Below, one piece after another: positions 4,356-23,732 of a stretch of 24,249 bases of DNA (the first letter of the stretch is position 1; each line of letters starts with the position of its first letter). The stretch is from positions 1 through 24,249 of the forward strand of contig QXWX01000100.1 of the NCBI GenBank assembly GCA_009911175.1. Direction: 5' to 3'. This stretch comes from Lachnospiraceae bacterium. Its GTDB lineage: Bacteria; Bacillota_A; Clostridia; Lachnospirales; Lachnospiraceae. The notes beneath the pieces are model-generated. The model saw only the letters and a program-made list of their open reading frames with translations. It was not told where the DNA came from and made no database searches. A program made the position numbers and the translations under genes.

Positions 4356-4401
4356 TAAAATGGTTAGGGCGCAAGCGGTAACTGGAAATAAAAGAACAGC
4401 A

Positions 4402-4431
4402 GGAGGGCTGACGACAACCGTCAAGCCCTCC
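4402..4431 (+). promoter_or_regulatory. Intercistronic hairpin between binding protein and permease
   Basis: GGAGGGCT (4402-4409) pairs with AGCCCTCC (4424-4431); GACG/CGTC extends the stem past one bulged A around an ACAAC loop. No T run follows, so it is more likely an mRNA-stabilising or partial attenuating element than a full terminator. It sits 15 bases before the permease start. Confidence 0.6.
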
Positions 4432-4445
4432 GGAAGGATGATGCT

Positions 4446-5324: not shown

Positions 5325-5336
5325 GGAAGGAGGGCA

Positions 5337-6182
5337 ATGGAAATGAAGAAAAAACGGTGGATGCATTGGTTTTCCCTTCTGCTGATCACCGCAGTGGGAA
5401 TCTGCATGGTCTATCCGCTGCTATGGATGTTTTTCGCGTCCTTTAAATCAAATGATGAGATCAACCTTGCGGCAGGGCTTTTGCCGGAGAACTTTGACTG
5501 GTCCGGTTTTATCAAAGGGTGGGAATCCTCCGGACAGTATACGTTTACGGATTTTTTTCTCAATACCTTTATGCTGGTGATCCCGACCGTATTGTTTACG
5601 GTGATTTCCTGCACGGTCGTTGCCTACGGATTTGCCAGATTTTCCTTTAAAGGAAATAAGCTGCTGTTCGGCGTGATGCTGTCCACCCTGATGGTGCCTA
5701 ACGCCGTGCTGATCATACCGAGATATCTGCTGTTCCGCAATTTCGGATGGCTGGACAGCTACATGCCGTTCTGGATGCCGGCGCTGTTTGCGTGCTATCC
5801 GTTTTTTATCTATCAGGAGGTGCAGTTTTTGAGGGGAATCCCGAGGGAGCTGGACGAGGCGGCCAAAATAGACGGATGCAATTCCTTTCAGATTTTCATA
5901 CGGATCCTGCTGCCGATCTTAAAGCCGTCCATGATATCCGTATGCATTTTCCAGACGATCTGGGTATGGAATGATTTTATGAATCCGCTGATCTACATCA
6001 ACAGCGTATCCAAATATCCGCTGTCGCTTGCGCTTCGGATGGGATTGGATGTCGCGGCGTCTGCAAACTGGAATGAGATCATGTCAATGGCATGCGTATC
6101 CATTCTGCCCCTGGTCATTCTGTTTTTCTGTCTGCAGAAATATTTTGTGGAAGGGATCGCGTCGTCGGGGCTGAAGGGATGA
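5337..6182 (+). CDS. ABC sugar permease, LplC/UgpE-type
   Basis: The 281-residue second permease of the first importer, with about six transmembrane segments beginning near residue 11. Its EAA loop reads LDEAAKIDGCNSFQIFIRILLP. The C-terminus (FVEGIASSGLKG) matches the usual end of MalG/UgpE-like proteins, where the tail packs against the ATPase. A GGAAGGAGG ribosome site lies just before ATG 5337, 12 bases after the first permease, so the two are probably co-translated. It forms the membrane channel with the 4446-5324 product. Confidence 0.93.
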   Translation: MEMKKKRWMHWFSLLLITAVGICMVYPLLWMFFASFKSNDEINLAAGLLPENFDWSGFIKGWESSGQYTFTDFFLNTFMLVIPTVLFTVISCTVVAYGFARFSFKGNKLLFGVMLSTLMVPNAVLIIPRYLLFRNFGWLDSYMPFWMPALFACYPFFIYQEVQFLRGIPRELDEAAKIDGCNSFQIFIRILLPILKPSMISVCIFQTIWVWNDFMNPLIYINSVSKYPLSLALRMGLDVAASANWNEIMSMACVSILPLVILFFCLQKYFVEGIASSGLKG

Positions 6183-6210
6183 AGCAAGATTAGGAAAGGA
6201 GAGAATCAAT

Positions 6211-9940: not shown

Positions 9941-10047
9941 ATAAAGGGATGCGGAGCGCCGGGAAAATAGCTGCTGCCGCAGCCGCGCTTCGGCGCGATT
10001 GCGCGTCAGGACGCATACTCTTCTACGACATAGAATATTGGGAGTGA
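9937..10047 (+). CDS. Possible 36-residue peptide between two operon genes
   Basis: An ATG overlaps the preceding stop (ATGA at 9937-9940), and the reading frame closes at TGA 10045-10047, four bases before the esterase start. The 36-residue product has an alanine run (IAAAAAALRR) and no recognised domain. Exact start-stop overlap at both ends fits coupled translation, but the peptide may only serve to carry ribosomes across the gap, or may be chance. It covers the UUCG hairpin at 9984-9997. Confidence 0.25.
   Translation: MNKGMRSAGKIAAAAAALRRDCASGRILFYDIEYWE
9984..9997 (+). promoter_or_regulatory. Small GC hairpin with UUCG tetraloop
   Basis: CGCGC-TTCG-GCGCG forms a 5-bp stem with the very stable cUUCGg loop. 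No T tract follows, so it is not a terminator. It may slow RNA decay or ribosomes between the DraG-like and esterase genes. Confidence 0.4.
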
Positions 10048-10051
10048 TCAG

Positions 10052-10747
10052 ATGGAATGGAAGTCGTGTATAAAACCAGGATATCTCTCGCGGGTGATGC
10101 GCGCGGACGAGAGAAGGATGGAGTTTGACTGTAAGAATCAGGTTATCCTGCAGAAGGAATGTCCGGTGGACGCTGTATTTATCGGGGATTCTATGATACA
10201 GATGTGGGAATTGTCCGCATATTTTGCAAAATATCCGCTGCGCATTCTGAACCGGGGAATCGGAGGAGACCGGACGGCTTCGCTTCTTCACCGTTTCCGT
10301 GCGGATGCGGTGCAGTTAAGACCGAAAACAGTCGTCATTCTGGCGGGGATCAACGATACATGGGATTTGGAATTTGATCATTGGAAGCAGGAATCCGGAA
10401 GGGAGCCGGGCGACATCTTACAGGATGCGCTCGGCAACATGGAACAGATTCTGCGGATCGCGTCAAAGGAAACGTTTCAGACCATATTGTGCTCGGTTTT
10501 GCCGACTTGTATGGAATGGACAAACCGGGAGCAGGAGAGGAAGAGATATGTGCGGGAATACAACAAGGGACTGAAACGGCTGGCGGAAATATATGGGGCG
10601 GACTTTGCGGATTTTTATCCGGAATTCGTAGAAAAAGACGGATGCACCCTGAAGCGGGAATGGAGCCTGGAAGGGCTCCATCCCAACGTGTTTGGGTATG
10701 ATAAGATGGCTGAGATTTTGGAGCGTGAAGTGGGCTTCAAGGGGTGA
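10052..10747 (+). CDS. SGNH/GDSL-type esterase
   Basis: A 231-residue cytoplasmic hydrolase of the SGNH superfamily, expected to remove acyl groups such as acetyl from sugars. Block I is FIGDSMIQMW with Ser47 as nucleophile. Block II is NRGIGGDRT with the oxyanion Gly near 71. Block III is LAGINDTWD with Asn101. Block V is LEGLHPN with His210. The acid three residues before the histidine is normally Asp (DxxH), but here it is Glu207, an uncommon substitution that may still work. It starts at ATG 10052 behind GGGAGTG and is the last gene of the first operon. Together with the glycosidase-like and DraG-like genes it suggests stepwise stripping of an acylated glycan fragment. There is no clear terminator after it. 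Confidence 0.88.
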   Translation: MEWKSCIKPGYLSRVMRADERRMEFDCKNQVILQKECPVDAVFIGDSMIQMWELSAYFAKYPLRILNRGIGGDRTASLLHRFRADAVQLRPKTVVILAGINDTWDLEFDHWKQESGREPGDILQDALGNMEQILRIASKETFQTILCSVLPTCMEWTNREQERKRYVREYNKGLKRLAEIYGADFADFYPEFVEKDGCTLKREWSLEGLHPNVFGYDKMAEILEREVGFKG

Positions 10748-11593: not shown

Positions 11594-11622
11594 TTGACAG
11601 ATTGAAATTTGTATGTTAGATT
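11594..11622 (+). promoter_or_regulatory. Strong sigma-A-type promoter of the second operon
   Basis: TTGACA (11594-11599) is a perfect -35. A 17-base spacer leads to TAGATT (11617-11622), preceded by TG at 11614-11615 as an extended -10. Transcription should begin near 11628-11630, inside the inverted repeat that follows. Confidence 0.75.
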
Positions 11623-11655
11623 TTAATTACTTAGGAAAGTTAAATAAGTAATTAA
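11623..11655. promoter_or_regulatory. Perfect inverted-repeat operator, probable ROK repressor site
   Basis: TTAATTACTTA (11623-11633) and TAAGTAATTAA (11645-11655) are exact reverse complements separated by 11 bases, with centres 22 bases apart. The repeat begins directly after the -10 and covers the likely transcription start, a position where a bound repressor blocks transcription. ROK repressors of the XylR/NagC group bind AT-rich palindromes of similar size. The ROK regulator at 17734 is the obvious candidate; pairing is inferred. Confidence 0.65.
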
Positions 11656-11688
11656 GACGAATGAAAATCAGGGAAGGATGGGAAAAGG

Positions 11689-12603
11689 ATGATGAAAAAA
11701 TCTAAAAAGAGCAGAATATTGTTAAACCATGATTCAAGTAAGGCATTGCCTCGCATGTTAATGCTGCCGTGCATGGTCATTGTTGCTATTGTGTTCATTT
11801 ATCCTATTTGTTATTCCTTTCTAATGAGCTTTCATCAAGTGGATATATCAAATCAGGAGTGGCAGTTTGCGGGATTAAAAAATTATATTCAATTATTTCA
11901 GGATCAATATTTCCTGAAATCAATGGCAGTGACCGGGCGTTTTACAATTCTTTCCGTTTGTTTTGAGATGATCATGGGTACGCTGATGGCTGTATTATTG
12001 AATAAAAATTTTAGAGGGAGGGGCTTTGTTCGCGGCATCATGATTATCCCATGGGCGTTGCCGACCGTTGTAAATGCGATCATGTGGAAGTGGATCTTTA
12101 ATGCCAATTATGGAGCATTTAACGCATTGCTTTCACAGTTAAATCTGATAGACACATATAAGGCATGGCTGGCACAGCCAAATAGCGCATTCTATTGCTT
12201 GCTGTTTGCAAATATCTGGAAGGAAACACCATATGTTGTACTGCTTGTACTTGCGGGCCTTCAGAGTATCCCGTCAGAATTATATGAAGCGGCAAGTGCG
12301 GATGGATGTGGTTCTGTCAGAGCCTTTTTCAAAATTACATTGCCAATGTTGAAACATATCCTGCTGATTTTAGTGATTACGAAGACCATTTGGACCATTC
12401 AAACCTATGATGTAGTTTCCATTATGACAGCAGGTGGACCGGCAAGTTCCACGCAGTTAATTTCTTACTACGTACAGAAGATGTCATTTAAGTTTTTTGA
12501 TTTTGGAATGGGGGCCGCAATGTCCTATATCATTATGCTGGTGACATTTGTTTTATCGGTTACCTATGTGAAAAGTATGGCAAGGAACGGCGAAGTGATA
12601 TGA
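11689..12603 (+). CDS. ABC sugar permease of the second importer, MalF/UgpA-type
   Basis: A 304-residue CUT1 permease subunit with about six transmembrane segments, the first at about residues 22-45 (MLPCMVIVAIVFIYPICYSF). The EAA loop reads LYEAASADGCGSVRAFFKITLP. It differs clearly in sequence from the first locus permeases, so the two importers are not recent duplicates. It opens the second operon, 34 bases after the inverted-repeat operator. ATG 11689 or 11692 could be the start; AAGG lies at 11674-11677. The DNA is more AT-rich than the block before 10750. It pairs with the permease at 12620 and needs an ATPase from elsewhere. Confidence 0.93.
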   Translation: MMKKSKKSRILLNHDSSKALPRMLMLPCMVIVAIVFIYPICYSFLMSFHQVDISNQEWQFAGLKNYIQLFQDQYFLKSMAVTGRFTILSVCFEMIMGTLMAVLLNKNFRGRGFVRGIMIIPWALPTVVNAIMWKWIFNANYGAFNALLSQLNLIDTYKAWLAQPNSAFYCLLFANIWKETPYVVLLVLAGLQSIPSELYEAASADGCGSVRAFFKITLPMLKHILLILVITKTIWTIQTYDVVSIMTAGGPASSTQLISYYVQKMSFKFFDFGMGAAMSYIIMLVTFVLSVTYVKSMARNGEVI

Positions 12604-12619
12604 GAGGAGGTGAGAGATA

Positions 12620-13489
12620 ATGAAGAAGAGAAAGGTTAAGAGGCTTTTGGCACAAACGTTCATTTATATACTTGCATTAATACTCAGTGTATATGTACTG
12701 GCGCCATATGCATGGCTGATTATCTCCAGTATCTCCAGCAAGTCAGATTTGATCTCCACACCGTTGCGCTGGTGGCCGGAAACGCCCACACTGGAGAATT
12801 ATATGAAGATTATACTGGGAACTTCCGGAGGAACGACGGATGCGGCAAATCAGTTCAAGTTTGCCTTAATAAACAGCCTGGTCATTGCAGTGATAGTTAC
12901 AGTAATATCACTGATCGCAGGGGTGCTGGCGGCATATGCATTTGCCCGATTCCGGTTTAGAATGAAAAAATCATTGTTTTATTCGGTGATTATTACACAG
13001 ATGGTTCCGCCGGTAGCATTGCTGATTCCACTGTATGTAATTTTTTTAAAGATGGGACTGACAAATACAAGAATAGGATTAATCATAATTTATTTATCAC
13101 TTACGCTGCCCTTTGTCGTTTGGATTATGAAAGGATATTTAACGAACTTGCCAATGGATATGGAAGACTCGGCTCGGGTGGATGGATGTACACAGTTAGG
13201 CGCGTTTTTCAGGATCATACTGCCGCTGTCCGGGCCTGGACTTGCGTCGACGGCAATCTTTATATTTATTATGTCATGGAATGAATTTTTCTACGCAGTG
13301 AACCTGACCTCGTCTATTGCCGCGAAAACAGTTCCGGTTATTATTACGGAATTTTCCAGCAAGGCAGGATATGATTTTATAATGGCTGCAACGGGAGGAG
13401 TTTTAGCAAGTATTCCGCCGGTTATACTATCGCTGGCATTCCAGAAATTTATTATTTCGGGTCTCACGGCTGGTGCTGTAAAAGGATAG
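12620..13489 (+). CDS. ABC sugar permease of the second importer, MalG/UgpE-type
   Basis: A 289-residue permease with about six transmembrane segments starting near residue 13. The ATPase-docking loop reads MEDSARVDGCTQLGAFFRIILP: the usual EAA is replaced by DSA, a mild variation seen in this family, while the loop Gly and Pro are kept. The C-terminus (FQKFIISGLTAGAVKG) is the family's standard ending. It starts at ATG 12620 behind GGAGG, 16 bases after the first permease. The binding protein follows 27 bases later, so gene order is permease-permease-binding protein, the reverse of the first locus. Confidence 0.93.
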   Translation: MKKRKVKRLLAQTFIYILALILSVYVLAPYAWLIISSISSKSDLISTPLRWWPETPTLENYMKIILGTSGGTTDAANQFKFALINSLVIAVIVTVISLIAGVLAAYAFARFRFRMKKSLFYSVIITQMVPPVALLIPLYVIFLKMGLTNTRIGLIIIYLSLTLPFVVWIMKGYLTNLPMDMEDSARVDGCTQLGAFFRIILPLSGPGLASTAIFIFIMSWNEFFYAVNLTSSIAAKTVPVIITEFSSKAGYDFIMAATGGVLASIPPVILSLAFQKFIISGLTAGAVKG

Positions 13490-13516
13490 AAAAGAGAAGA
13501 ACAAGGAGGAAAAAAG

Positions 13517-14806
13517 ATGAAAAGAAGCAAAAGATTACAAGCGGTAATATCGGCTATGGCGTTATGTCTTGTGGTTGGCTGCAGCGCTGTGGAGGGACAG
13601 GACGGTCATACAGAAAAGGGAGAAAAAGAGAAAATCACAGTAGTTGTTCCTCGTCAGGAATTAGATACCGTAGGTCTGGTTGAGGAGTACGTACGAGAGT
13701 TTGAGGAGAAAAACGGTATAGAGGTAGAATTGATCAATGCGGCATGGGATGTATGTACAGATAAAATCAGGACAGAGCTTTCCGTTGGCGGATCGTCCTA
13801 TGATGTAGTAGATTTTGATAACTCATTGGTTGCAATGTACATTGAGAATGACTGGCTGGAGCCTCTAGATCAGTATGACGGGGCGGAAGAGATGAAGAAA
13901 ACTATGGTCGAAGGTCTGGTTGACAAATTTACAGTGGATGATTCTTTCTATGGAGTGGTCTGGAATAACGATACACATGTCTATTTATATAATGAAAAAA
14001 TGCTGAATGATGCAGGGATTGCAGAACCGCCGAAGACTTGGGAGGAATTGATTGCTGTAAGCAGGACTTTGATTGACAAGGGAATATGTAAATATGGAAT
14101 GCCAATGTGTTTTTCCGGTAATGGAGCAGTGAATGAAGTGACTTGTGCAATATATTCTTTTGGCGGAAATGTTTTCCAGAATGGGAAGCTATGTATAGGT
14201 TCTGATGAGGGAGCGCTGGAAGCGTTAAAAACTCTGGCATCCATGTTGGATGAGGGCTTGATTGATCCGGCTTCCTTATCCTATGACTATGAAGCGGCGG
14301 CAAATGTCTTTTTGAATGGCGACAGCGCATTTTTTATTCAGGCCATGCCGGGATTGTACACAACTGCAAACGACCCGGAACAATCTCAGGTGGCAGGTGA
14401 AATTAAGGCGGCACCCTATACAATAACAAACAGCAAGGATACCAATGTTGTGCTTACCGTGCCGGAAGCTTATGCAATACCAAAGAACAGCCAGCATAAA
14501 GAGGCAGCATGGGAATTTATAAAATATATGGCCTCTGTTGAATTTGATAAGGTTAAGGCTGTAGAATTAGGCGCGCTGCCTGTATACGAAGCTGTTTTTG
14601 AAGAGGAAGAGGTGTTAAATGCGCATCCGGAATTTGCAGAAATGAGCACTCAGGTAGAATATGCGAGAGGCCTGGATGACTTTACATGGTATGATGAATA
14701 TTCTAACATATTTCAGTCAGAGCTTCAGAGTCTGCTTTTAGGTAATATTACAGCAGAGCAGTGTGTTGAAAATATCCAGAAGCAATGTGCGCAGTATGAA
14801 GAATAG
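13517..14806 (+). CDS. Extracellular solute-binding lipoprotein of the second importer
   Basis: A 429-residue family 1 solute-binding protein. The signal peptide ends in LVVGC with lipid-anchor Cys22. The mature part opens with EKITVVVPRQELDTVGLVEE and shows the usual alternating lobes, including SYDVVDFDNS near residue 95 and a late LTVPEAYAIPKNSQHKEAAWEFIKY segment typical of sugar binders. ATG 13517 follows a textbook AAGGAGGAAAAAAG site. It delivers the substrate to the permeases at 11689 and 12620. The ligand is presumably the substrate of the downstream isomerase-kinase-aldolase set, a monosaccharide or short glycoside. Confidence 0.93.
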   Translation: MKRSKRLQAVISAMALCLVVGCSAVEGQDGHTEKGEKEKITVVVPRQELDTVGLVEEYVREFEEKNGIEVELINAAWDVCTDKIRTELSVGGSSYDVVDFDNSLVAMYIENDWLEPLDQYDGAEEMKKTMVEGLVDKFTVDDSFYGVVWNNDTHVYLYNEKMLNDAGIAEPPKTWEELIAVSRTLIDKGICKYGMPMCFSGNGAVNEVTCAIYSFGGNVFQNGKLCIGSDEGALEALKTLASMLDEGLIDPASLSYDYEAAANVFLNGDSAFFIQAMPGLYTTANDPEQSQVAGEIKAAPYTITNSKDTNVVLTVPEAYAIPKNSQHKEAAWEFIKYMASVEFDKVKAVELGALPVYEAVFEEEEVLNAHPEFAEMSTQVEYARGLDDFTWYDEYSNIFQSELQSLLLGNITAEQCVENIQKQCAQYEE

Positions 14807-14877
14807 CTTTAGCTACTATCAGGAAAGAAAAATGTACTGATTTATAAATGGATACAGTTTTAATCTAAGAACTCTTT

Positions 14878-14899
14878 TTCAGGCATAGAAAGGCCTGGA
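14878..14899 (+). promoter_or_regulatory. Hairpin between the transport and catabolic genes
   Basis: TTCAGGC (14878-14884) pairs with GCCTGGA (14893-14899, one G-U) around an eight-base loop. The T run is on the wrong side for a plus-strand terminator. It may set different mRNA levels for the transporter and enzymes. The isomerase ribosome site AAGGAGGAG follows. Confidence 0.4.
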
Positions 14900-14934
14900 G
14901 TTTAGAGTATATATATTACAAGGAGGAGAAAAAA

Positions 14935-16320
14935 ATGATAAAACCTAGGATTGGATTTTTGATTTTCGGTCAGCACAAGGATGGGACTCATACACATGTA
15001 GGCGGGCCGCACATGGATTATCTTTTGTTTGACAAGTGTAAGGACGCTGTAAGGTCTTATGGTATTGAACTGGTCTGCGAGGAGGTAGTAATCCGCGATA
15101 AGGATGAGGCGAAAGCGGCATTGCGAAAATTCCGTATAGACGATGACCTGGATGGTGTCATCCTGTTTTCCGGCACATGGGTGTGGTCATCCAATTTGAT
15201 CGCGGCAGTCCGGGAATTTGCTAAAACAGGCAAAGGAATTGTACTATGGACAATACCGGGTTCGGAGGGCTGGCGTACAGTAGGAGGGCTGGTTATGCAT
15301 GGTGCTTTCAATGAAATTGGAATTGAGCACAGGTTTGTATACGGCAATTATGACGAGCCGGAGCAATTGCGTAAGATTGCGGATTATTGCCGCGCGGCTG
15401 CTCTGAAAAATAAACTGAATATGGCTACCGTCGGATCCTTTGGAGGAAGGGGAATGGGGCAGACCGTGGGTGTGGCCGATCCTTCTCAGGTTATGCGGAT
15501 GTTCGGCATAGATATTGATTCCCGTGATACGACACAGCTTATTGAATGCGCGAAAAGTATTCCGGAGGAAGAAGTGAAGGCTCTGGAACCCCGTCTGATC
15601 AAACTGTTTGGAGGATTGCCTGAGGATGATGCTGTGACAGACCGCTCTTTGCGGATTTATCTTGCGCTGAAGAAAAAGATGAAAGAACTGAAATTTGATT
15701 ATTATACGATTCAGTCGTTTCCAGGCATTGGCGATGATTATACGGCGACCTGCTTTGCGCAGAGTCTGATGCTTGACGATGGAATAGGAACATCCACGCT
15801 TGGTGACTTCAATACACTGCTGACGACAATCGCGCTTACGGAATTGAGCGGACAAAGCGTCTACTATGGTGATCTGCAGGCGATTGTACGTGAAGAAAAT
15901 GAAATCCGTATTATTGGAGACGGAGCCTGCCCGCCGTCGCTTGCGGGAGAATTGGATCCTCCCGCGTATGCCCATCATGGAGTTCCCTATGAGGGGAAAA
16001 TGGATGGCTTGTCTGTACAGCTTACCTGTAAACCAGGTGAAGGCGTGATTGCGAGACTCTGCCGTATTAATGGCGAATATGCGATGACGATTGCGCGCTG
16101 CACTGTAATCGAGCCAAAACCGGAGGAACTGGAGAGCAAAAAACTGGAATGCGGATCACCGATGTGGCCCCATGCATTCTGCAGGATTCATGGAGATTTG
16201 GATGCGTTTATTGAGGGATGGAATAATGAATATGCATGTCTTGGCTACGGTGGAGATGAACTCTATGAGCAAATGGCGGCATTTTGCGATCTGACAGGAA
16301 TCCGGAAAGTACTTATCTGA
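14935..16320 (+). CDS. L-fucose/L-arabinose isomerase superfamily sugar isomerase
   Basis: A 461-residue cytoplasmic protein of the FucI/AraA superfamily, which interconverts aldoses and ketoses with a divalent metal. The N-terminal part has Rossmann-like strands (PRIGFLIFG; DGVILFSGTWVWSS). Characteristic stretches are GGLVMHGAFNEIGIEHRF (about 116-133) and GSFGGRGMGQTVGVAD (about 163-178). The C-terminal beta domain carries candidate metal ligands in the LDDGIGTSTLGDFNTLL region and His in PHAFCRIHGD. It is shorter than classical FucI (about 590 residues) and near AraA length (about 500), matching the many uncharacterised members in sugar operons. It begins behind AAGGAGGAG. It probably makes the ketose that the ROK kinase phosphorylates and the class II aldolase splits. 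The aldose is unknown; L-fucose itself is not established. Confidence 0.85.
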   Translation: MIKPRIGFLIFGQHKDGTHTHVGGPHMDYLLFDKCKDAVRSYGIELVCEEVVIRDKDEAKAALRKFRIDDDLDGVILFSGTWVWSSNLIAAVREFAKTGKGIVLWTIPGSEGWRTVGGLVMHGAFNEIGIEHRFVYGNYDEPEQLRKIADYCRAAALKNKLNMATVGSFGGRGMGQTVGVADPSQVMRMFGIDIDSRDTTQLIECAKSIPEEEVKALEPRLIKLFGGLPEDDAVTDRSLRIYLALKKKMKELKFDYYTIQSFPGIGDDYTATCFAQSLMLDDGIGTSTLGDFNTLLTTIALTELSGQSVYYGDLQAIVREENEIRIIGDGACPPSLAGELDPPAYAHHGVPYEGKMDGLSVQLTCKPGEGVIARLCRINGEYAMTIARCTVIEPKPEELESKKLECGSPMWPHAFCRIHGDLDAFIEGWNNEYACLGYGGDELYEQMAAFCDLTGIRKVLI

Positions 16321-16354
16321 TCAAGGGCGCGGGAAAAATAATTCATAATGAACA

Positions 16355-16387
16355 GCGGCTGTATGGAAGAAGAATGCATACAGCCGC
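16355..16387 (+). promoter_or_regulatory. Strong intercistronic hairpin between isomerase and epimerase
   Basis: GCGGCTGTATG (16355-16365) pairs perfectly over 11 bp with CATACAGCCGC (16377-16387) around an 11-base loop. No T run follows. It is likely an mRNA-stabilising or processing element rather than a terminator, as the next ribosome site (CGGAGGG) follows within 15 bases. Confidence 0.6.
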
Positions 16388-16407
16388 GCAGATAACGGAG
16401 GGATAAA

Positions 16408-17643
16408 ATGAAGCTGAAAGCAAAAGATTATGCGGAGTATTATAAGAAACATCTTGTGGAGGAATGCCTGCCGTTTTGGGACCGCTGTATAGACAAAGAA
16501 TATGGGGGATATTTTACCTGCTTTGACAGGGAGGGTAATCTGACAGACAGTAATAAATATGTCTGGTTCCAGGGAAGACAGGTTTATACGTATGCATTGT
16601 TATATAATCGGATTGAAAAACGTCAGGAATGGCTGGATAAAGCGTATCATGGATACAAATTTTTAGTCGAACATTGTTATGCTGGCAATGGCCGTTGGAA
16701 CCTGCGTCTCAACCAGGCAGGGGAAGTGCTTGTCGGTACGATTGCCATTTACGCGGATCTGCACTGTATACAGGGGCTGGCAGAGTTTATGCTTGCGACA
16801 CAGGGCACCATCAAAGAAGGGATGCGGATTCTGAACGACAGCTATGACACGCTTGAAAAAAATATGTTTGATCCATTTTTTAAGGAGATTTTTGAAAATA
16901 CATGGAGTGAAAAGTTTATCTGGCATGATATGTACTTAACTGCATTGAGCGTAGCGGAGGCATGTACTCCTGTCTTGGGAGAAAGGCGGACCAGCCGGCT
17001 GCTGGAGGAAAGTCTGGACAAAATTTTGTACTGGTTTACCCGTGAGGAGTATCATGTAGTATTGGAAGCGATTCGGCGTGATAATACACCAGATTTGGAT
17101 GACCTGCAAGGACGGTTTGTAAATCCCGGACATATGGTAGAAAGTATGTGGTTCTGTCTGGATACCAACCGCAGATTAAAAGATCCGAAGATGCAAAAAC
17201 GAATTCTGGATGTAATTGATTGGGCATTTGACATCGGTTATGATAAAGAGTACAATGGATTATATGCGTTTGTCGATGTTTCAGGAGGGAAGCCGAAGGA
17301 GGCTCTTGACTGGTATGTAGAATGTAATTGTGAATGGAACGACAAAGTGTGGTGGCCGAATTCAGAAGCACTTTGTGCATTTGCAATGGCATTTGCGGAC
17401 ACTGGCGATGAAAAGTATGGCGAGATGTTCGAAAAGCAGCACGCTTTTTGCCGGGATTATTTTTATGACCCGGAGTTTGGTGAATGGTACAGTTTCCTGA
17501 ACCGTGACGGTTCCGTCAAATCTTCTGAGAAAGGTTCCAGATGGAAATGTGCGTTTCATGTATTGCGTGCGTTGGTGTTTGTATATGAAGCGATGCAGAG
17601 GGCAAGCGAAAGAGAGAGGGCTCTCGAGTGTTATCAATCATGA
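16408..17643 (+). CDS. AGE-family (N-acylglucosamine 2-epimerase-like) epimerase/isomerase
   Basis: A 411-residue (alpha/alpha)6-barrel enzyme of the AGE superfamily, which contains GlcNAc 2-epimerase, cellobiose 2-epimerase, mannose isomerase and the sulfoquinovose isomerase YihS. All act at C1-C2 through an enediol formed by active-site histidines. Expected residues are present: Arg57 in FQGRQVYTYA, His242 and Glu245 in NPGHMVESMWF, Glu320 in VWWPNSEAL, and His384 in KCAFHVLRAL. The length of about 400 matches the family. It sits in the operon beside an unrelated FucI-type isomerase, so the cell may handle two epimers or feed one into the other. The exact reaction cannot be chosen from sequence alone. 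Confidence 0.88.
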   Translation: MKLKAKDYAEYYKKHLVEECLPFWDRCIDKEYGGYFTCFDREGNLTDSNKYVWFQGRQVYTYALLYNRIEKRQEWLDKAYHGYKFLVEHCYAGNGRWNLRLNQAGEVLVGTIAIYADLHCIQGLAEFMLATQGTIKEGMRILNDSYDTLEKNMFDPFFKEIFENTWSEKFIWHDMYLTALSVAEACTPVLGERRTSRLLEESLDKILYWFTREEYHVVLEAIRRDNTPDLDDLQGRFVNPGHMVESMWFCLDTNRRLKDPKMQKRILDVIDWAFDIGYDKEYNGLYAFVDVSGGKPKEALDWYVECNCEWNDKVWWPNSEALCAFAMAFADTGDEKYGEMFEKQHAFCRDYFYDPEFGEWYSFLNRDGSVKSSEKGSRWKCAFHVLRALVFVYEAMQRASERERALECYQS

Positions 17644-17733
17644 AAACCGAAAATTTAGATTTCATAACTGGCTGAGATTGTGAAAGTATTGTAATGCAAA
17701 ATAGATAAACAGGAAGAACGGCGGAGAATATTT

Positions 17734-18921
17734 ATGGAAACAGGAAAACCAGAAGTTATTGCGCAGATGAATAAGTCGGCGATCGTCCGGCTGCTGAAAC
17801 AGCATGAAAGGCTGTCCAGAGCTGATTTGACCAGGATGCTTCATATGAGCTTCCCGTCTGTATCATCAAATACAAAGCAGCTATTAGAAGATAACTATAT
17901 TATTGAATATGGCGTTTCAGCCGGAAAAGATGGCCTTGGACGTCGTTCAGTCTTGCTTGCTTTTAATGAAAAACGGGGATTTGTGGTCGGAGTCTGCTTT
18001 AATATCAATAAGATCATAACTGCATGCGCAGATCTTTTGGGCAATCCATTAAGTGTTGTGGAAAAAAATATGGATTTAACGAAGGATGGGGAATACGCTT
18101 ATACGTTGATTCGTGATTCCATAAATGAAGTACTTAATAAAAGCTCTGTTTCGCTTGAAAAACTGGAGTGCATTTGCGTGGGCATTCCTGGCATATTTGA
18201 TGAAAACAGTCAAAAGAATCGATTTGTTCCTTATCTGGATTCCTGGGAGGATATTCAGATTGTCGATCGGTTAAAGCATGACTTTGTTGAAAATGTAGTA
18301 GCTGAAAATGTCGTAAATTTAGGTGTCATCGGGGAAAAATGGAGAGGAAACGCGCAGAATTATCAGAACGTCGTATATATCGAATATGATGTTGGCATTT
18401 CTGCGGGGTTGATTTTAAACGGGGAACTATATTGCGGGCCAAACGGTCTTGCAGGAGAAGTAGGCTACATAGTCCTCGACCCCAGACAGATGGCAAAAAC
18501 ATTTTCTGACGAAGGCGCACTGGAGGAATTGATTTCAGGAATTGCCCTGTCAAATGTTTTAAATGATATCAACGACTTAAGCGAAGAGCATTTTGATATT
18601 GAACCATTAATTTTACTCAGTGATAACGGAAATGACCGGGCCGGAGAAATGATGGACCATGTTGTCCGCCATATTGCGGCAATGATCATCAATACAGTGG
18701 CAGTATTGAATCCTGAGGTCGTGATTCTGTCGGGCATAAATGGGATACAGATTGGACGGCGGTATCTGGATGTTATCACGGAATTGGTGAGAGCACATGT
18801 TCCGTTCCTTCCGCATATAGAAATATCAAAATATACAGGCAATCAGGCAGGACTGTATGGCGCATTGCGTATGTCGATCATGAATGCGGCATCGAATATC
18901 GACAACGAGCATTTTATATAG
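17734..18921 (+). CDS. ROK-family transcriptional repressor (XylR/NagC-type)
   Basis: A 395-residue regulator. An N-terminal winged helix (about residues 12-75; SRADLTRMLHMSFPSVSSNTKQLLEDNYI) precedes a ROK sugar-binding fold. Kinase features are lost: the catalytic-loop Asp is missing (AENVVNLG instead of a V-NDAN pattern), GEFGH has become GEVGY, and the CxCGxxGCxE zinc motif is absent. It should therefore sense sugar without phosphorylating it and release its operator when bound. The perfect palindrome at 11623-11655 in the operon promoter is the probable site. The start is ATG 17734 with GGAG seven bases upstream. Only weak promoter-like sequence precedes it, so it is likely transcribed with the operon and represses its own production. 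Confidence 0.9.
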   Translation: METGKPEVIAQMNKSAIVRLLKQHERLSRADLTRMLHMSFPSVSSNTKQLLEDNYIIEYGVSAGKDGLGRRSVLLAFNEKRGFVVGVCFNINKIITACADLLGNPLSVVEKNMDLTKDGEYAYTLIRDSINEVLNKSSVSLEKLECICVGIPGIFDENSQKNRFVPYLDSWEDIQIVDRLKHDFVENVVAENVVNLGVIGEKWRGNAQNYQNVVYIEYDVGISAGLILNGELYCGPNGLAGEVGYIVLDPRQMAKTFSDEGALEELISGIALSNVLNDINDLSEEHFDIEPLILLSDNGNDRAGEMMDHVVRHIAAMIINTVAVLNPEVVILSGINGIQIGRRYLDVITELVRAHVPFLPHIEISKYTGNQAGLYGALRMSIMNAASNIDNEHFI

Positions 18922-18972
18922 TTCGGCTCTGTTTGGCATTCAAAAAATTCTGGCCAGTATTCTATAGGAAAA

Positions 18973-20145
18973 ATGAAAAAACAACGATTATTGCTTATCA
19001 CGATGTTAGGCTTTCTTTTTGTGCTCGGATTAGACACTGGGGGCTTTCAGCAGATTATATTAAAAATTGCGCAAGAGTATGAATTGAGTTATTCACAGAT
19101 GAGTGGTCTGGTGACGGTAAAATGTATATCCAATTTCCTTTGTATTCTTGTATTTGGACCGATTTCAGACAGGATAGGGAAGAAATACATTCTTTTATGT
19201 GCTTCGGGAATTTTTTCCGGAGGCTGTATACTTGCCGCATGCACACATACATTTTTGTTTACGGCGACTGCGGTTATAGTGATAGGGATGGCTTTTGGTA
19301 TATGTGAAGGTTTATCATCCGCCGTTTTGGCTGATGCGTTCCCTGATCAGAGGGAGCGGATGCTGAATCTTTCGCAGGGGCTGTTCAGCGCGGGGGCGGT
19401 TTCGGGTCCGCTGCTGGTTACGGCTGTTATGCGCGGTGCCGGAGTAGATTGGCGCAGGGAGTTTTTAATACTTGCTGTTCTTATGGCTGTATTATTTGTT
19501 CTGCTGGTGGTGGTTCCTGTGCCTGGATATGTACAGGCAGCAGAGAAGGCTTTGCAAAAGGAAAAAGAAAAAAAGGCGTTTGGCGGGATTCCTGTAAAAA
19601 TGATTGGAGTTTTATTTTGCGCTATGCTTTTATATTCTGGAATGGAAAATGGTTTGGGATATTTTATAGATACATTTTTTGTACATCAGTATGATGCGGC
19701 ACAACTATCCACATTTGCATTATCAGGAATGTGGCTGGCAATGTTTTTATCAAGGCTGATCTGCGCTTCTTCTAAAGGAAAACACGAATGTGTAGTTTTG
19801 TGGTCTCTGACTATATTAATTTTCCTTTCCATCGGTCTGATACTCGCAAAGGCAAGTATGTCTGCAATGCTTATCTGTGTCCTGTTTGGCGCGGCATTTG
19901 GCCCTGTCTGGCCAATGCTGATCAGCTTTTCGGTTCGGGAGGCGCCGGCATATTCAGGAACGATAACAAGCTGGATGGCAGCAGGCAGCAGTATTGGAGC
20001 AAGTGTATTTCCGCTGTTAATGGGAAGCGCGGCTGATTTATTGGGAGATATCAGATATGCGGCCGGGGTGCTGCTTGCATTGGCGATTTCTGCTGTAGTT
20101 GTGTTCGGATTTTATCTGGCGAAAAGAGAAAACGTCAGAATATAG
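18973..20145 (+). CDS. Major facilitator superfamily transporter
   Basis: A 390-residue membrane protein with about 12 hydrophobic segments in two halves split by a charged loop (EKALQKEKEKKAF, about residues 190-203). The loop between segments 2 and 3 has the MFS motif FGPISDRIGKK (about 60-70), a match to G-x-x-x-D-R-x-G-R/K-K. The start is ATG 18973 with AGGAA close upstream. In this operon it accompanies a complete ABC importer, so it may import a second form of the sugar, or export a by-product. Direction and substrate are not visible from sequence. Confidence 0.9.
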   Translation: MKKQRLLLITMLGFLFVLGLDTGGFQQIILKIAQEYELSYSQMSGLVTVKCISNFLCILVFGPISDRIGKKYILLCASGIFSGGCILAACTHTFLFTATAVIVIGMAFGICEGLSSAVLADAFPDQRERMLNLSQGLFSAGAVSGPLLVTAVMRGAGVDWRREFLILAVLMAVLFVLLVVVPVPGYVQAAEKALQKEKEKKAFGGIPVKMIGVLFCAMLLYSGMENGLGYFIDTFFVHQYDAAQLSTFALSGMWLAMFLSRLICASSKGKHECVVLWSLTILIFLSIGLILAKASMSAMLICVLFGAAFGPVWPMLISFSVREAPAYSGTITSWMAAGSSIGASVFPLLMGSAADLLGDIRYAAGVLLALAISAVVVFGFYLAKRENVRI

Positions 20146-20163
20146 TTATATTGGAGAAGGTAT

Positions 20164-21156
20164 ATGAAATATTTTTTGACATTGGATTTAGGAGGAACAA
20201 AGACATCTGCCGCATTGTTTACGCAGGAAGGCGTCATGGTAGAGAATTATGTATATACTGTAGCATCTAAAACCTTTCATGGGGAATCAGCGGTATATGA
20301 AAATTCAAAAAAAGCATTGGAACATATCTTGGATCAGTTTAAAGTGGATATGTCAGAGGTTTTGGGAATGGGGGTTGGATGTCCCGGGCCGTTGGACGCG
20401 GATCGTGGAATTATTTTAAATGCGCCCCTAATGGGATGGAAAAATTTTCCGTTAAAGGACAGGCTGACCCAGGATTTTCAGCTTCCGGTTAGAGTTGATA
20501 ATGACTGTAATCTGGGGGCTTTGGCAGAGCAGCGTCAGGGCTGTGCGATGGGATTGAAAAATGTGATTTATGTTACGGTCAGTACGGGAGTAGGGGCAGG
20601 AATTTTAATTGACGGACAGATTTACCATGGAAAGACAGGAGGAGCAGGTGAATTCGGCCATCTCTCGATAGAAGAGAATGGCAAGTTATGTCCTTGCGGC
20701 AACAGGGGATGTCTGGAATTGTACTGTTCAGGGACGGCAATCAAGGATATCCTTGTACAGGAATCACGAAAAGGAACAAAGGGACTGGTATTCGACCTGG
20801 CGGCAGGCAATAAAGGAAAGCTGGATGCAAAATTGCTGGCAGAGGCGGCGGAGCAAGGGGATGCTTTTTCTTTGGCTTTGTTCGAAAGAATCGGAGAAAG
20901 ACTGGGATATGGTCTGTCAAATTTATTTAACCTTTTTGACCCGGATATGGTAGTTATAGGAGGCGGTGTTTCGAAAAGCCATCAATTTTTTGAGGAGGCA
21001 TTGCTCCGGGCATTGAAAAGCCGTGTGATCGGATACGTTCAGGATGGACAGATTGCGTACTCAAGTATGTGCGACAAGGTGGTACTTTACGGAGCCTGTT
21101 CTTTGATTCGTGAGGCAGTGGAGAAAGGAGAAAAATCATGTCATTTGTTACATTAA
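20164..21156 (+). CDS. ROK-family sugar kinase
   Basis: A 330-residue ATP-dependent sugar kinase of the ROK group (glucokinase, fructokinase, ManNAc or allose kinase). ATP-binding DLGGTKT is at 8-14, the sugar loop includes CPGPLDADRG (73-82), the catalytic base Asp114 lies in VDNDCN, AGEFGH is at 161-166 and the structural zinc motif CPCGNRGCLE is at 176-185. All elements needed for activity are intact, in contrast with the repressor at 17734. Its 3' end overlaps the aldolase gene by 19 bases, so the two proteins are made together; this supports a kinase-to-aldolase step in one pathway. GGAGAAGG precedes the ATG. The sugar and the position phosphorylated are unknown. Confidence 0.93.
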   Translation: MKYFLTLDLGGTKTSAALFTQEGVMVENYVYTVASKTFHGESAVYENSKKALEHILDQFKVDMSEVLGMGVGCPGPLDADRGIILNAPLMGWKNFPLKDRLTQDFQLPVRVDNDCNLGALAEQRQGCAMGLKNVIYVTVSTGVGAGILIDGQIYHGKTGGAGEFGHLSIEENGKLCPCGNRGCLELYCSGTAIKDILVQESRKGTKGLVFDLAAGNKGKLDAKLLAEAAEQGDAFSLALFERIGERLGYGLSNLFNLFDPDMVVIGGGVSKSHQFFEEALLRALKSRVIGYVQDGQIAYSSMCDKVVLYGACSLIREAVEKGEKSCHLLH

Positions 21157-21992
21157 AAGAGATTTTGAGAGGAACAAGAGAAAATGGTTACGCAGTCGGC
21201 GCATTTAATTTTAACAGCTATGAGGATGTACAGGGAATCATCAATGGCGCAGTCGCTAAGAAGGCTCCTGTCATAGTAATGGCAAGTATGGGAGCGGTGA
21301 AGTATATCGGACTGAAGGCTACGGCATATATGGTTCGCGGAATTGCGGAATCGGCGGAGATTCCGGTCTGTCTGCATTTGGACCATGCGACAGATTTGGA
21401 CTTGATTCAGAAGTGTATTGATGTGGGATTTACCTCTGTCATGATTGACGCGTCTATGAAGTCTTACGAGGAAAACATACAGGAGACCGCGTCTATCGTT
21501 GCCTATGCAAAGAAGATGGGATGCTCGGTGGAGGCTGAATTGGGAAGAGTCGGTGGAAGAGAAGAGGAAGTGATCGTTGATGAAGCTTCAGCGGCATTTA
21601 CGAATCCTGAGGATGTGCCTGATTTTGTAAAAAGAACGGGGATAGACGCGCTTGCGATTGCATTTGGGACAGCGCACGGTTTTTATAAAAAAGAACCGAA
21701 GCTTGACTATGAACGTATTGCGGCAATTGCAGAAATTACAGAGATTCCTCTGGTAATGCATGGGGGAACCGGGGTGTCAGAGGAAGGGTTCAAAAAAGCG
21801 ATCCGAAATGGCATCAGCAAAGTAAATGTGGGTACAGAATTGAAAGCGACATATGTTTCTGCCATACGAGACGTGACAGCCAGGAATCCAGGGGAGGGGG
21901 ATCCCAGAAAGTACATGTGCAGTGTAAAACAGGACTGCAGCGAGGTCGTTCAGAGAAAGATAGACATATTTGGCTGTGCAGGCAGAGGCTAA
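21138..21992 (+). CDS. Class II ketose-bisphosphate aldolase (FbaA/GatY/KbaY-like)
   Basis: A 284-residue zinc-dependent aldolase that splits a phosphorylated ketose into dihydroxyacetone phosphate and an aldehyde. Catalytic Asp82 and zinc ligand His83 lie in HLDHA, Glu134 is in VEAELG, and His180 (GTAHG) and His208 (MHGG) complete the zinc site. The phosphate-binding NVGTELK motif is at about 230-236. The length matches GatY/KbaY and short FbaA proteins. It starts at ATG 21138 inside the kinase gene, behind AAAGGAG. With the isomerase at 14935 and the overlapping kinase it forms a glycolysis-like branch. Tagatose-, fructose- or deoxy/sulfo-sugar phosphates are all possible substrates. Confidence 0.92.
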   Translation: MSFVTLKEILRGTRENGYAVGAFNFNSYEDVQGIINGAVAKKAPVIVMASMGAVKYIGLKATAYMVRGIAESAEIPVCLHLDHATDLDLIQKCIDVGFTSVMIDASMKSYEENIQETASIVAYAKKMGCSVEAELGRVGGREEEVIVDEASAAFTNPEDVPDFVKRTGIDALAIAFGTAHGFYKKEPKLDYERIAAIAEITEIPLVMHGGTGVSEEGFKKAIRNGISKVNVGTELKATYVSAIRDVTARNPGEGDPRKYMCSVKQDCSEVVQRKIDIFGCAGRG

Positions 21993-22034
21993 AACATATG
22001 GCATTTAGAGAATTATAAGAATGAGGTGGGAGCT

Positions 22035-23132
22035 TTGAGACTTTATGGAAAGAATCTGACTCGTAAAGAAATTGAAGCAAGGGTTCCGGATATTCTCCAG
22101 ATTTGCGGGACTCGTCCTTATGAGCTGACGGAGGGAGCCGCAAGGGGAACCCGCGTGGTGGATGTGGATACAGGGATTCTTTGTTATAGTGTGGTACTGG
22201 ATCGAGGGATGGACATTTCGTTAACAAAATATAAGGGAATGAATCTGACGCATCTCACGGAAAACGGGGAGGTCCATCCAGCCTTTTATGAGTCTCGCGC
22301 AAATGAATGGGCCAGGATATTCTTTGGGGGCATGCTGACTACATGCGGCCTTACATATTTGGGGCCAGCGGGAATGGATGGATGCGAAGAATTGGGACTG
22401 CATGGCCGCTATTCTGCCATTCCGGCCCGGCGGGTACGGGATTTATCGGAGTGGGACGGGGACGAGTATGCGATCATTCTGCAGGGGCAAATAGATGAAA
22501 CCGTGCAGATGGGAACAAAAATGCGTCTGGAGAGAAGTATAAAAAGCAAGGCAGGTGAAGCGGTAATCCATATTCACGATGTGGTTACAAATACAGGAAC
22601 CTCAGAAGCGCCGTTTACAATATTGTACCATATAAATTTCGGTTTTCCGCTGTTAGATGCCGGTACACGAATCCTGATACAGAGCAGAGATTCCATTCCC
22701 TTTGACGCGTATTCAGAATCAAAGATGGAGAGACGGCTTCAAGTAGAACATCCAAAGGCCGGGGCACTGGAGGAAAATTATCTATGCCCGGCTGCGGCAG
22801 ATAAAAATGGAAATGGATATGCCTTGATGGTGAATGACAGTCTGATGTCTGGTATTGGAGTTTATATCAAGTCCTCGGTTGGTACCTTACCTTACTTTTG
22901 TGAGTGGAAAATGCTGGATGAAAGGGATTATATAGTGGCAATAGAACCAAGTAATGTCAAATGTGAAAATCGAAGTGTTCTGCGGCAAAAAGGTCTGCTG
23001 CCGATTCTCAAACCTGCGGAATCAAAAGTAATGGATATAGAGATCGGAGTGCTGGAAGGGAAAGAGCAGATCAAGGCGCTGGAAAAGCACATGGCGGAGG
23101 TGATTTATAACGGAAAGGCGGTGGAACAGTAA
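22035..23132 (+). CDS. DUF4432 family aldose mutarotase-like protein
   Basis: About 365 residues from TTG 22035, chosen because GAGG lies eight bases upstream; an in-frame GTG at 22026 has no ribosome site. The family hallmark is the start LYGKNLTRKEIEARVPDILQ followed by TRVVDVDTG and LDRGMDI. The fold is the galactose mutarotase-like beta sandwich; members are found with sugar catabolic genes and are thought to act on the anomeric carbon or as epimerases, though most are untested. Candidate active residues include Glu and His in LYHINFGFP and the GLHGRYSAIPAR segment. It probably supplies the anomer needed by the isomerase or kinase. It abuts the next gene with TAAATG. Confidence 0.85.
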   Translation: MRLYGKNLTRKEIEARVPDILQICGTRPYELTEGAARGTRVVDVDTGILCYSVVLDRGMDISLTKYKGMNLTHLTENGEVHPAFYESRANEWARIFFGGMLTTCGLTYLGPAGMDGCEELGLHGRYSAIPARRVRDLSEWDGDEYAIILQGQIDETVQMGTKMRLERSIKSKAGEAVIHIHDVVTNTGTSEAPFTILYHINFGFPLLDAGTRILIQSRDSIPFDAYSESKMERRLQVEHPKAGALEENYLCPAAADKNGNGYALMVNDSLMSGIGVYIKSSVGTLPYFCEWKMLDERDYIVAIEPSNVKCENRSVLRQKGLLPILKPAESKVMDIEIGVLEGKEQIKALEKHMAEVIYNGKAVEQ

Positions 23133-23732
23133 ATGTCATATGTGATAGCAGTGGCAGGACTTCCGGCTTCTGGGAAATCTTCATTAGCGGAATATCTGGC
23201 GAGGGAGGCGCGTCTTCCTTTGATTTGTAAGGATTCTATAAAAGAGGCATTGTTTGATACAGTTGGATTTCATAGCAGGCAGGAAAAAACTACATTAAAC
23301 AGGGCTGCGCTGAAAATTATGTTTTATGTCGGCGAACAGATTATCAGAGCCGGACAGAACGTTATTTTAGAAAATAATTTTGAAAATGATGCTTATCCGT
23401 ATTTTGAAATGCTATTAGAGCATAATGATGTACACTGTATTACAATATCTGTAGGAGGGGATACGAAGACAATATATGAGCGTTATGTAAGGCGCAACAG
23501 AGATCCATCTAGGCATCGCGGGCATGTACTTTCCACGGAATATCCAGAAAAAAAGAATCCGGGGCACATCCCGGAACCGATTGCTTTTAAGGAATTTTGT
23601 CAGGGATTTCAGGAACGCGGGATGATGGATTTCAAAATTGGGGAGTCCGTAATTTATGTAGATACAACAGATTTTTCGAAGATGCGGTATGAAGATATTT
23701 TATCAGCTTTAAAACAAAAATTAAAAGAATAG
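23133..23732 (+). CDS. P-loop NTP-binding kinase-like protein (AAA_33/zeta-toxin-like fold)
   Basis: A 199-residue protein with Walker A GLPASGKSS at about 9-17 and an acidic KDSIKEALFD stretch, followed by a strand ending in ILENNFEND and a helical lid with Arg-rich YVRRNRDPSRHRG (likely phosphate binding). This is the layout of small-molecule kinases and zeta-like proteins. Its start codon directly follows the DUF4432 stop (TAAATG), and AAGGCGGTGG provides the ribosome site. Placed last in a sugar operon, it is more likely a metabolite or sugar kinase than a toxin, as no antitoxin gene is beside it. The substrate is unknown. Confidence 0.8.
   Translation: MSYVIAVAGLPASGKSSLAEYLAREARLPLICKDSIKEALFDTVGFHSRQEKTTLNRAALKIMFYVGEQIIRAGQNVILENNFENDAYPYFEMLLEHNDVHCITISVGGDTKTIYERYVRRNRDPSRHRGHVLSTEYPEKKNPGHIPEPIAFKEFCQGFQERGMMDFKIGESVIYVDTTDFSKMRYEDILSALKQKLKE

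What the first reader, a model, noticed from the sequence alone, without database searches (positions are those of the whole stretch)
14935..23732. Isomerase, ROK kinase and class II aldolase branch for an unknown sugar
One operon joins a FucI/AraA-superfamily isomerase, a ROK kinase overlapping a class II aldolase, an AGE epimerase, a DUF4432 mutarotase-like protein and a P-loop kinase. This would carry an aldose to a ketose, a ketose phosphate and two C3 units. The standard fucose, rhamnose and arabinose routes use FucK/FucA-type kinases and aldolases, which are absent. A modified hexose is possible, including a sulfo-EMP-like route as in sulfoquinovose users with ROK kinase and class II aldolase; however, no sulfolactaldehyde reductase, sulfoquinovosidase or sulfonate exporter is identifiable here.
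Basis: partly seen in the sequence, partly recalled or inferred. Interest (0 to 1): 0.75.

Follow-up and report, generated by a model that had tools for sequence, protein, structure and literature searches.

The report
Sugar operon with a remodelled isomerase
A gut bacterium carries what looks like one switchable set of genes for taking up and breaking down an unidentified sugar, and its central enzyme belongs to a large, little-studied family that has the shape of known sugar isomerases but lacks amino acids those enzymes use for catalysis.

Summary
The genes are there as described (14935-23732), and the unit is larger: a CUT1 ABC transporter (11689-14806) and a promoter with a perfect inverted-repeat operator (11623-11655) precede it; the operator core recurs at ROK-repressor/isomerase genes of two other Clostridia. 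The isomerase-kinase-aldolase logic is conserved: of 36 relatives' loci with full flanks, 29 have an FGGY kinase, 25 a DHAP-type aldolase, 24 both. Two findings change the reading. (1) The 'isomerase' family lost two catalytic/metal positions: AraA E306/FucI E337 is Leu289 in 211 of 211 sequences and AraA H450/FucI H528 is Tyr433 in 210 of 210; 19 of 19 other superfamily members in hand keep the Glu and His. (2) The window aldolase keeps the second-phosphate motifs that 21 of 21 aldolases beside relatives lack, so a ketose 1,6-bisphosphate is likelier here than a 6-modified sugar. A sulfoquinovose route has little support; the sulfo-EMP2 kinase is PfkA-type, not ROK. The substrate stays unknown. 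New variant of a known kind.

The parts
11594..11622 (+). sigma-70-like promoter TTGACA-17-TAGATT
   Evidence: consensus scan, 10 of 12; the scan total (38) is not clearly above shuffles (31.2), so weak alone
11623..11655 (+). candidate ROK-repressor operator: perfect 11-bp inverted repeat, 11-bp spacer, directly after the -10
   Evidence: core TACTTA-N11-TAAGTA recurs exactly upstream of the ROK repressor in L115 and with 1 mismatch between repressor and isomerase in L113; the best 33-mer of each of these two loci lies there, by a margin of 1-2
11689..12603 (+). CUT1 ABC permease 1 (UgpA/MalF-like)
   Evidence: homologues next to the isomerase in L008 and L073, about 7 kb away in L110
12620..13489 (+). 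CUT1 ABC permease 2
13517..14806 (+). sugar-binding lipoprotein SBP
14935..16320 (+). AraA/FucI-fold protein, putative aldose-ketose isomerase with remodelled active site (L289, D291, D313, D329, H348, H413, E432, Y433)
16408..17643 (+). AGE-family 2-epimerase, nearest solved relatives are N-acetylglucosamine 2-epimerases
   Evidence: no tblastn match (E 1e-15) within 6 kb in 90 of 90 relatives' loci
17734..18921 (+). ROK-family protein, presumably the repressor (NagC/Mlc-like, winged HTH, no kinase motifs)
   Evidence: 40% and 35% homologues beside the isomerase in L113 and L115
18973..20145 (+). MFS carrier
20164..21156 (+). ROK sugar kinase, intact motifs
   Evidence: F. contorta homologue P0130 has the same longest-contig length as isomerase P0007
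21138..21992 (+). class II ketose-phosphate aldolase keeping the second-phosphate motifs (SMGAVKY, DPRKY with R257)
22026..23132 (+). DUF4432, aldose 1-epimerase-like (mutarotase) protein, GTG start
   Evidence: 3ty1; homologue within 6 kb in 18 of 90 relatives' loci
23133..23732 (+). P-loop kinase-like protein (AAA_33), candidate second kinase; last gene of the unit
   Evidence: no tblastn match within 6 kb of the isomerase in 90 of 90 loci

Best explanation
Window 11594-23732 is one inducible uptake-and-degradation unit for an unidentified sugar. Supported by comparison: the unit is preceded by an operator shared with two other ROK-repressor/isomerase loci; isomerase-fold protein, kinase, DHAP-type aldolase and mutarotase-like protein belong together across many bacterial phyla. 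Inferred: the ABC transporter imports the sugar; DUF4432 interconverts its ring forms; the AraA/FucI-fold protein turns the aldose into a ketose, using an active site in which the usual Glu and His are replaced (D313, D329 and E432 are the candidates for a rebuilt site); the ROK kinase adds the first phosphate (probably at C6, as known ROK sugar kinases do, recalled); the P-loop kinase or a housekeeping phosphofructokinase adds the second at C1; the class II aldolase then splits a ketose 1,6-bisphosphate into DHAP and glyceraldehyde 3-phosphate. Relatives with a single FGGY kinase and an aldolase without the second-phosphate site would run the same ketose through its 1-phosphate to DHAP and an unphosphorylated aldehyde.
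For: Operator. Gene association: 36 loci with full flanks, 29 FGGY, 25 aldolase, 24 both, 22 mutarotase-like. ROK kinase linked to isomerase in F. contorta by equal longest-contig length 277,331. Aldolase second-phosphate motifs: kept in the window, absent in 21 of 21 aldolases beside relatives; the window aldolase passes the cut-off of TIGR00167 ketose-bisphosphate aldolase (299.9 of 215.6 bits), the L017 aldolase does not (85.3); the Arg is equated with Listeria FBA Arg257/Giardia Arg280, which 'may' interact with carbon 6 of FBP (PMC4973958, passages). Fold. Active-site columns; AraA E306, E333, H350, H450 named as active or essential residues in PMC11172353 and PMC3520711 (passages).
Against: The loss of the Glu and His argues against ordinary isomerase chemistry. 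The P-loop kinase is found in 0 of 90 relatives' loci and no P-loop homologue with a 277,331-base longest contig is among the 120 rows shown of 271, so its place in the pathway is weak. AGE is also in 0 of 90. Amino-sugar genes (NagA, NahK, AgaS/NagB-like) lie near some relatives and fit a different or mixed substrate. No glycosidase or aldehyde-handling gene is in the unit. Operator margins are small: next-best 33-mers score 21 against 23 (L113) and 21 against 22 (L115), and at 2-3 mismatches the core alone is no commoner than chance. In the near-identical genome the motif (1 mismatch) was not found, but its contig starts only about 150 bases before the SBP gene. Only 1 of the 6 other class II aldolases of that genome shows both second-phosphate motifs, so the motifs are not universal in the family.
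Confidence: 0.5

Rival explanations
1. The AraA/FucI-fold protein is not an aldose-ketose isomerase but does other chemistry on the sugar (for example a metal-free epimerisation or an elimination); in the window the AGE protein, whose superfamily includes true isomerases such as YihS, makes the ketose.
For: Leu at the FucI E337/AraA E306 column in 211 of 211 sequences and Tyr at the H528/H450 column in 210 of 210; profile-profile alignment gives the same columns. AGE fold includes the SQ isomerase 7ag4 and a D-mannose isomerase family (weak matches).
Against: AGE is absent from 90 of 90 relatives' loci, many of which still have kinase and aldolase and so need a ketose. D313 is kept and E432, D329 are invariant, so a rebuilt site is possible.
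Confidence: 0.3
2. The unit serves N-acetylhexosamines: AGE interconverts ManNAc and GlcNAc, the ROK protein is a GlcNAc-type kinase, the repressor is NagC-like, and the isomerase/aldolase pair handles a companion sugar of the same glycan.
For: Nearest AGE structures are GlcNAc 2-epimerases; repressor best matches NagC (108.7 of 650 bits). NagA follows isomerase-DUF4432 in L113 downstream of the same operator type; L110 has an AmidoH2-NahK-phosphohexosamine mutase-NagA run about 2 kb from the isomerase and a transporter like the window's; NagA in 4 of 93 loci, AgaS-like in 9, NagB-like in 9 (the 93 include three pieces of the near-identical contig). NagA passes its cut-off in L110 and L014, not in L113 (cut by the contig end) and L076. 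NahK and GH20 were named by eye and had no NCBIfam hit at 1e-20.
Against: No NagA or NagB in the window unit; most relatives' loci have none; the ROK kinase scores best as glucokinase (218.7 of 260 bits) rather than NagK (101.1 of 380). No background rate for these genes was measured.
Confidence: 0.25
3. A sulfo-EMP2-like sulfoquinovose route.
For: Same step order (mutarotase, FucI-like isomerase, kinase, class II aldolase) as sulfo-EMP2; the aldolase keeps an anion site that a sulfonate could occupy; Faecalicatena species use SQ by sulfo-TAL (PMC12890257, passage).
Against: Isomerase 76.6 of 700 bits for SftI; the best SftI-model match of the near-identical genome, L123 (101.2 bits, also below cut-off), keeps E-x-D while the window does not; sulfo-EMP2 kinase is PF00365 and its mutarotase SqvB or YihR, not ROK and DUF4432; no SQase, SLA reductase or sulfonate exporter recognised in the unit; relatives' aldolases lack the second-anion motifs. 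The paper on class II SF-1-phosphate aldolases was not held, so SqiA residues were not compared.
Confidence: 0.04
4. A disguised L-fucose or L-rhamnose route with replaced kinase and aldolase.
For: FucI-like fold; relatives pair it with FGGY kinases and aldolases without the second-phosphate motifs, as a 6-deoxyhexose would need.
Against: The near-identical genome has a canonical FucI (over cut-off; nearest solved relatives L-fucose/D-arabinose isomerases) beside what looks by eye like an FGGY kinase elsewhere (C31); the window aldolase keeps the second-phosphate motifs.
Confidence: 0.1

Closest known systems
L-arabinose isomerase AraA / L-fucose isomerase FucI superfamily
   Different: 15-18% identity in the structural alignments; Leu289 for the catalytic/metal Glu and Tyr433 for the metal His in all sequences examined; own invariant motifs (FGGRGMGQ, ADPSQ, TLxDFNT, YYGDLQ, GDGAxPPS, NEYA)
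Sulfo-EMP2 pathway (SqvB, SqvD, SqiK, SqiA)
   Same: Order of reactions and class II aldolase family
   Different: Kinase ROK instead of PfkA type, DUF4432 instead of SqvB, isomerase not SqvD/SftI, no sulfonate genes recognised
Tagatose/fructose bisphosphate routes (ROK 6-kinase, GatY/AgaY/FBA aldolase)
   Same: Aldolase with second-phosphate motifs and above the TIGR00167 ketose-bisphosphate aldolase cut-off; ROK kinase
   Different: Aldolase below the narrower cut-offs (345 of 423 bits FBA PRK12857, 324 of 384 tagatose type PRK09195); preceded by an isomerase-fold protein with altered site; AGE and DUF4432 added

Membership tests
AraA/FucI metal-dependent aldose-ketose isomerases | AraA/FucI fold over the full length | tested here: met
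AraA/FucI metal-dependent aldose-ketose isomerases | catalytic/metal Glu (AraA E306, FucI E337) in an E-x-D motif | tested here: not met
   Leu289 in 211 of 211 family sequences (120 proteins and 91 loci, partly the same genes); Glu in 19 of 19 other superfamily members aligned; hhalign agrees. FucI numbering recalled; AraA numbering
AraA/FucI metal-dependent aldose-ketose isomerases | metal His (AraA H450, FucI H528) | tested here: not met
   Tyr433 preceded by Glu432 in 210 of 210; His in 19 of 19 others
AraA/FucI metal-dependent aldose-ketose isomerases | second acidic ligand (FucI D361, AraA E333) | tested here: met
   D313 in 211 of 211, aligned with the Asp of the FucI FADV motif; against AraA the shift is one column
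Sulfoquinovose isomerase SqvD/SftI | score over NF048012 cut-off (700 bits) | tested here: not met
   76.6 bits; best in near-identical genome 101.2
Sulfo-EMP2 gene set | PfkA-type SqiK, SqvB/YihR, SQase, SLA handling enzyme | tested here: not met
   none recognised among the unit's ORFs in Pfam/NCBIfam scans; definition from PMC9594981
ketose 1,6-bisphosphate class II aldolase | second-phosphate site: Ser/Thr-x-Gly-x-x-Lys/Arg-Tyr/His and DPR(K/Y)Y Arg | tested here: met
   TIGR00167 299.9 of 215.6 bits; role of the Arg from PMC4973958; role of the Ser motif recalled
ROK sugar kinase | DxGGT, catalytic ND, GExGH, CxCGxxGCxE | tested here: met
   substrate not testable with these tools
DUF4432 / aldose 1-epimerase-like | Pfam PF14486 match and relation to a solved aldose 1-epimerase-like structure | tested here: met
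   284.4 bits; 3ty1 'hypothetical aldose 1-epimerase' E 1.6e-21; mutarotase activity itself not tested

The most novel reading that the evidence does not exclude
A common but unstudied AraA/FucI-fold enzyme family, spread over a dozen bacterial phyla and embedded in conserved mutarotase-isomerase-kinase-DHAP-aldolase clusters, has replaced the superfamily's metal/catalytic Glu and His by Leu and Tyr (with invariant D291, D313, D329, E432), and so catalyses sugar isomerisation by a new active-site design on a sugar with no described pathway.
Probability: 0.4. Interest if true: 0.75.

Novelty: new variant of a known kind. Interest (0 to 1): 0.58.

Why it matters
If true, a well-known sugar-isomerase fold has a large branch whose chemistry is not that of its textbook members, while sources name some of its proteins L-arabinose isomerase or L-fucose isomerase-like. 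The branch is not small: 200 stretches in species genomes encode a relative, and the protein search gave 3152 hits at E 0.001, of which I saw the best 120, none under 57% identity; the rest may include other branches. The conserved kinase and aldolase beside it mean that an environmental and gut sugar is probably degraded by a route I found no assay of, and the set of proteins to test is small and defined.

Tried and rejected
Sulfoquinovose route: rejected as above. Canonical fucose route: disfavoured because the near-identical genome has FucI elsewhere. Substrate from neighbouring hydrolases: nothing consistent; the relatives' loci show Melibiase-like GH, GH28, BNR repeats, NagA, a nucleoside hydrolase, each in a few loci. 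Getting the F. contorta locus: only the near-identical genome itself (and one 53% relative, G327) came up in the 397, 12, 392 and 395 genomes searched by family, genus, order and relatives (samples overlap), and none of the class sample's other 13 hits of 391 exceeds 58%, so the F. contorta linkage rests on equal contig length only. Placing AraA's four active residues by the first sequence alignment: E306 to L289, E333 to G312 (D313 next to it), H350 to G330 (D329 next to it); model coordinates were not among the files my scripts could read, so geometry was not checked. Other genomic copies of the operator: none with 1 mismatch in the near-identical genome. Literature: four names for this family or PF14486, 0 papers; DUF4432, 2 papers that look unrelated by title and abstract start; a five-term pathway search, 0. 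These searches cover only the open library held.

Limits: the gene-association queries were partly cluster representatives taken from the same loci, the loci include close Acidobacteria pairs, and 54 of 90 loci have less than 6 kb on one side. One search gave 14 of 391 genomes; I fetched ten of them beside the near-identical one and left out three partial matches (L107-L109). My first ORF caller found the isomerase in 73 of 80 loci; one search replaced it with tblastn, 90 of 90. Aldolase L048 is cut at its C-terminus, so DPRKY could not be judged there (20 of 20 judged lack it). Apart from the near-copies, one search aligned 21 aldolases found by similarity to the window's; the DhnA-type aldolases are another fold and were not compared.
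Full report
What is there. The window holds a co-directional run from 11689 to 23732: two CUT1 permeases, a sugar-binding lipoprotein, the AraA/FucI-fold protein (14935-16320), an AGE-family epimerase, a ROK repressor, an MFS carrier, a ROK kinase whose end overlaps a class II aldolase by 19 nt, a DUF4432 protein and a P-loop kinase. A near-identical MAG contig (uncultured Lachnospiraceae, L001, 96-99% protein identity over the nine shared genes) shows glutamate synthase genes after the P-loop gene, so the unit ends there.

Control. Just after the -10 of a TTGACA-17-TAGATT promoter lies a perfect 11-bp inverted repeat with an 11-bp spacer (11623-11655); at up to 3 mismatches it is the only match in the window and 100 shuffles gave none. 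Its core TACTTA-N11-TAAGTA occurs exactly upstream of a ROK repressor gene next to an isomerase gene in L115; among 134 loci the only other hit, L099, is the same site of the same genome. In L113 the core recurs with one mismatch between the ROK repressor and the isomerase; at 2-3 mismatches the core is no commoner than chance in either locus. Scoring the whole 33-mer at every position of both loci, the top position is this one in each: 23 of 33 in 12.4 kb of L113 (next 21, at the same place on the other strand and at 7762, just upstream of the repressor gene), 22 of 33 in 20 kb of L115 (next 21, elsewhere). The 17734 protein has the winged HTH and lacks kinase motifs, the 20164 protein has them. 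I take the former to be the repressor of the whole unit (inference).

One pathway. I fetched 80 loci of relatives from species genomes (200 of 238 candidate stretches encoded one, the best 80 were kept) and 11 more from unnamed Lachnospiraceae and Clostridia-class genomes. In 90 loci, without the window's own near-copy, tblastn within 6 kb finds a kinase in 60 (57 FGGY; the 4 ROK matches may be repressors), a DHAP-type aldolase in 44 (24 class II, 23 DhnA type), both in 42, a mutarotase-like protein in 39, an amidohydrolase in 35; in the 36 with full flanks: 29 FGGY, 25 aldolase, 24 both, 22 mutarotase-like. Non-homologous enzymes filling the kinase, aldolase and mutarotase places argue for a conserved sequence of reactions. 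AGE and the P-loop kinase occur in 0 of 90. A ROK kinase in this place is seen only in the window's kin: the F. contorta isomerase cluster (85%) and its ROK cluster (66%) both have a longest contig of 277,331 bases. The isomerase is rare in the family: 2 of 397 Lachnospiraceae-family genomes have it (the other 12 of 14 hits at E 1e-20 are 25-30% paralogues); in the class 14 of 391 (E 1e-60).

The aldolase tells the phosphates apart. The window aldolase keeps SMGAVKY and DPRKY, like the named bisphosphate aldolases printed (2fjk, 7nc7, 1rv8, 4to8; 1gvf has TPGTFKH and DPRYY), and passes the ketose-bisphosphate aldolase cut-off of TIGR00167. Its Arg257 has the number and, by inference, the place of Listeria FBA Arg257, equated with Giardia Arg280, which may interact with carbon 6 of FBP (PMC4973958, passages). 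Of 21 class II aldolases beside relatives, 0 have either motif (one is cut short). As a control, of the 6 other class II aldolases of the near-identical genome 1 has both motifs or nearly so (DPRKL, SEGAGKY), 1 a DPR only, 4 none, so the motifs do separate members of the family. If the isomerase substrate is the same across the family, which its conservation suggests, the simplest joint reading is one ketose phosphorylated once by FGGY kinases elsewhere and twice here, by the ROK kinase plus the P-loop kinase or phosphofructokinase. That needs a free terminal hydroxyl and speaks against 6-deoxy and 6-sulfo sugars. This chain is inference.

Against the sulfo reading: scores, gene set and residues all differ, though the step order is the same and SqiA residues could not be compared. 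Against a single clean story: amino-sugar genes near some relatives, including a NagA-like gene next in the run after isomerase-DUF4432 downstream of the same operator type in L113, and NagA over its cut-off in L110 and L014, and the AGE gene in the window. I could not name the sugar.

Novelty. No paper in the searched library uses the four names or PF14486 that I tried, and nothing on DUF4432 function was listed. The route's logic is known, its central enzyme family, as far as these searches go, is not. I rate it a new variant of a known kind.

Noticed in passing
window 3015-10747: A second CUT1 ABC set followed by a 596-aa protein without Pfam or NCBIfam match (6211-8001), a 658-aa ADP-ribosylglycohydrolase-family protein and a GDSL lipase, beside a divergent histidine kinase/AraC-type response regulator pair (247-2834).
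   Followed up: partly
window 16355-16387: Perfect 11-bp inverted repeat with 11-bp spacer (GCGGCTGTATG/CATACAGCCGC) between the isomerase and AGE genes; role unknown.
   Followed up: no
L115 4574-17971: Isomerase operon of another Clostridia-class genome also holds a mannitol-1-phosphate dehydrogenase-like gene and lies beside a BMP-type ABC transporter (by eye) and a RihA-like nucleoside hydrolase.
   Followed up: partly
L013 120-1229 and relatives: An amidohydrolase_2 family protein accompanies the isomerase in 35 of 90 loci (two types counted together); no function can be assigned.
   Followed up: partly
L027 4953-6140; L036 5933-6829: Two protein groups without Pfam match (395 and about 290 aa) next to the isomerase look by eye like further mutarotase-type proteins.
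   Followed up: partly
L119 11422-12834: A second FucI/AraA-superfamily protein, with the ordinary E-x-D motif, lies about 1 kb from the Leu-type one.
   Followed up: partly
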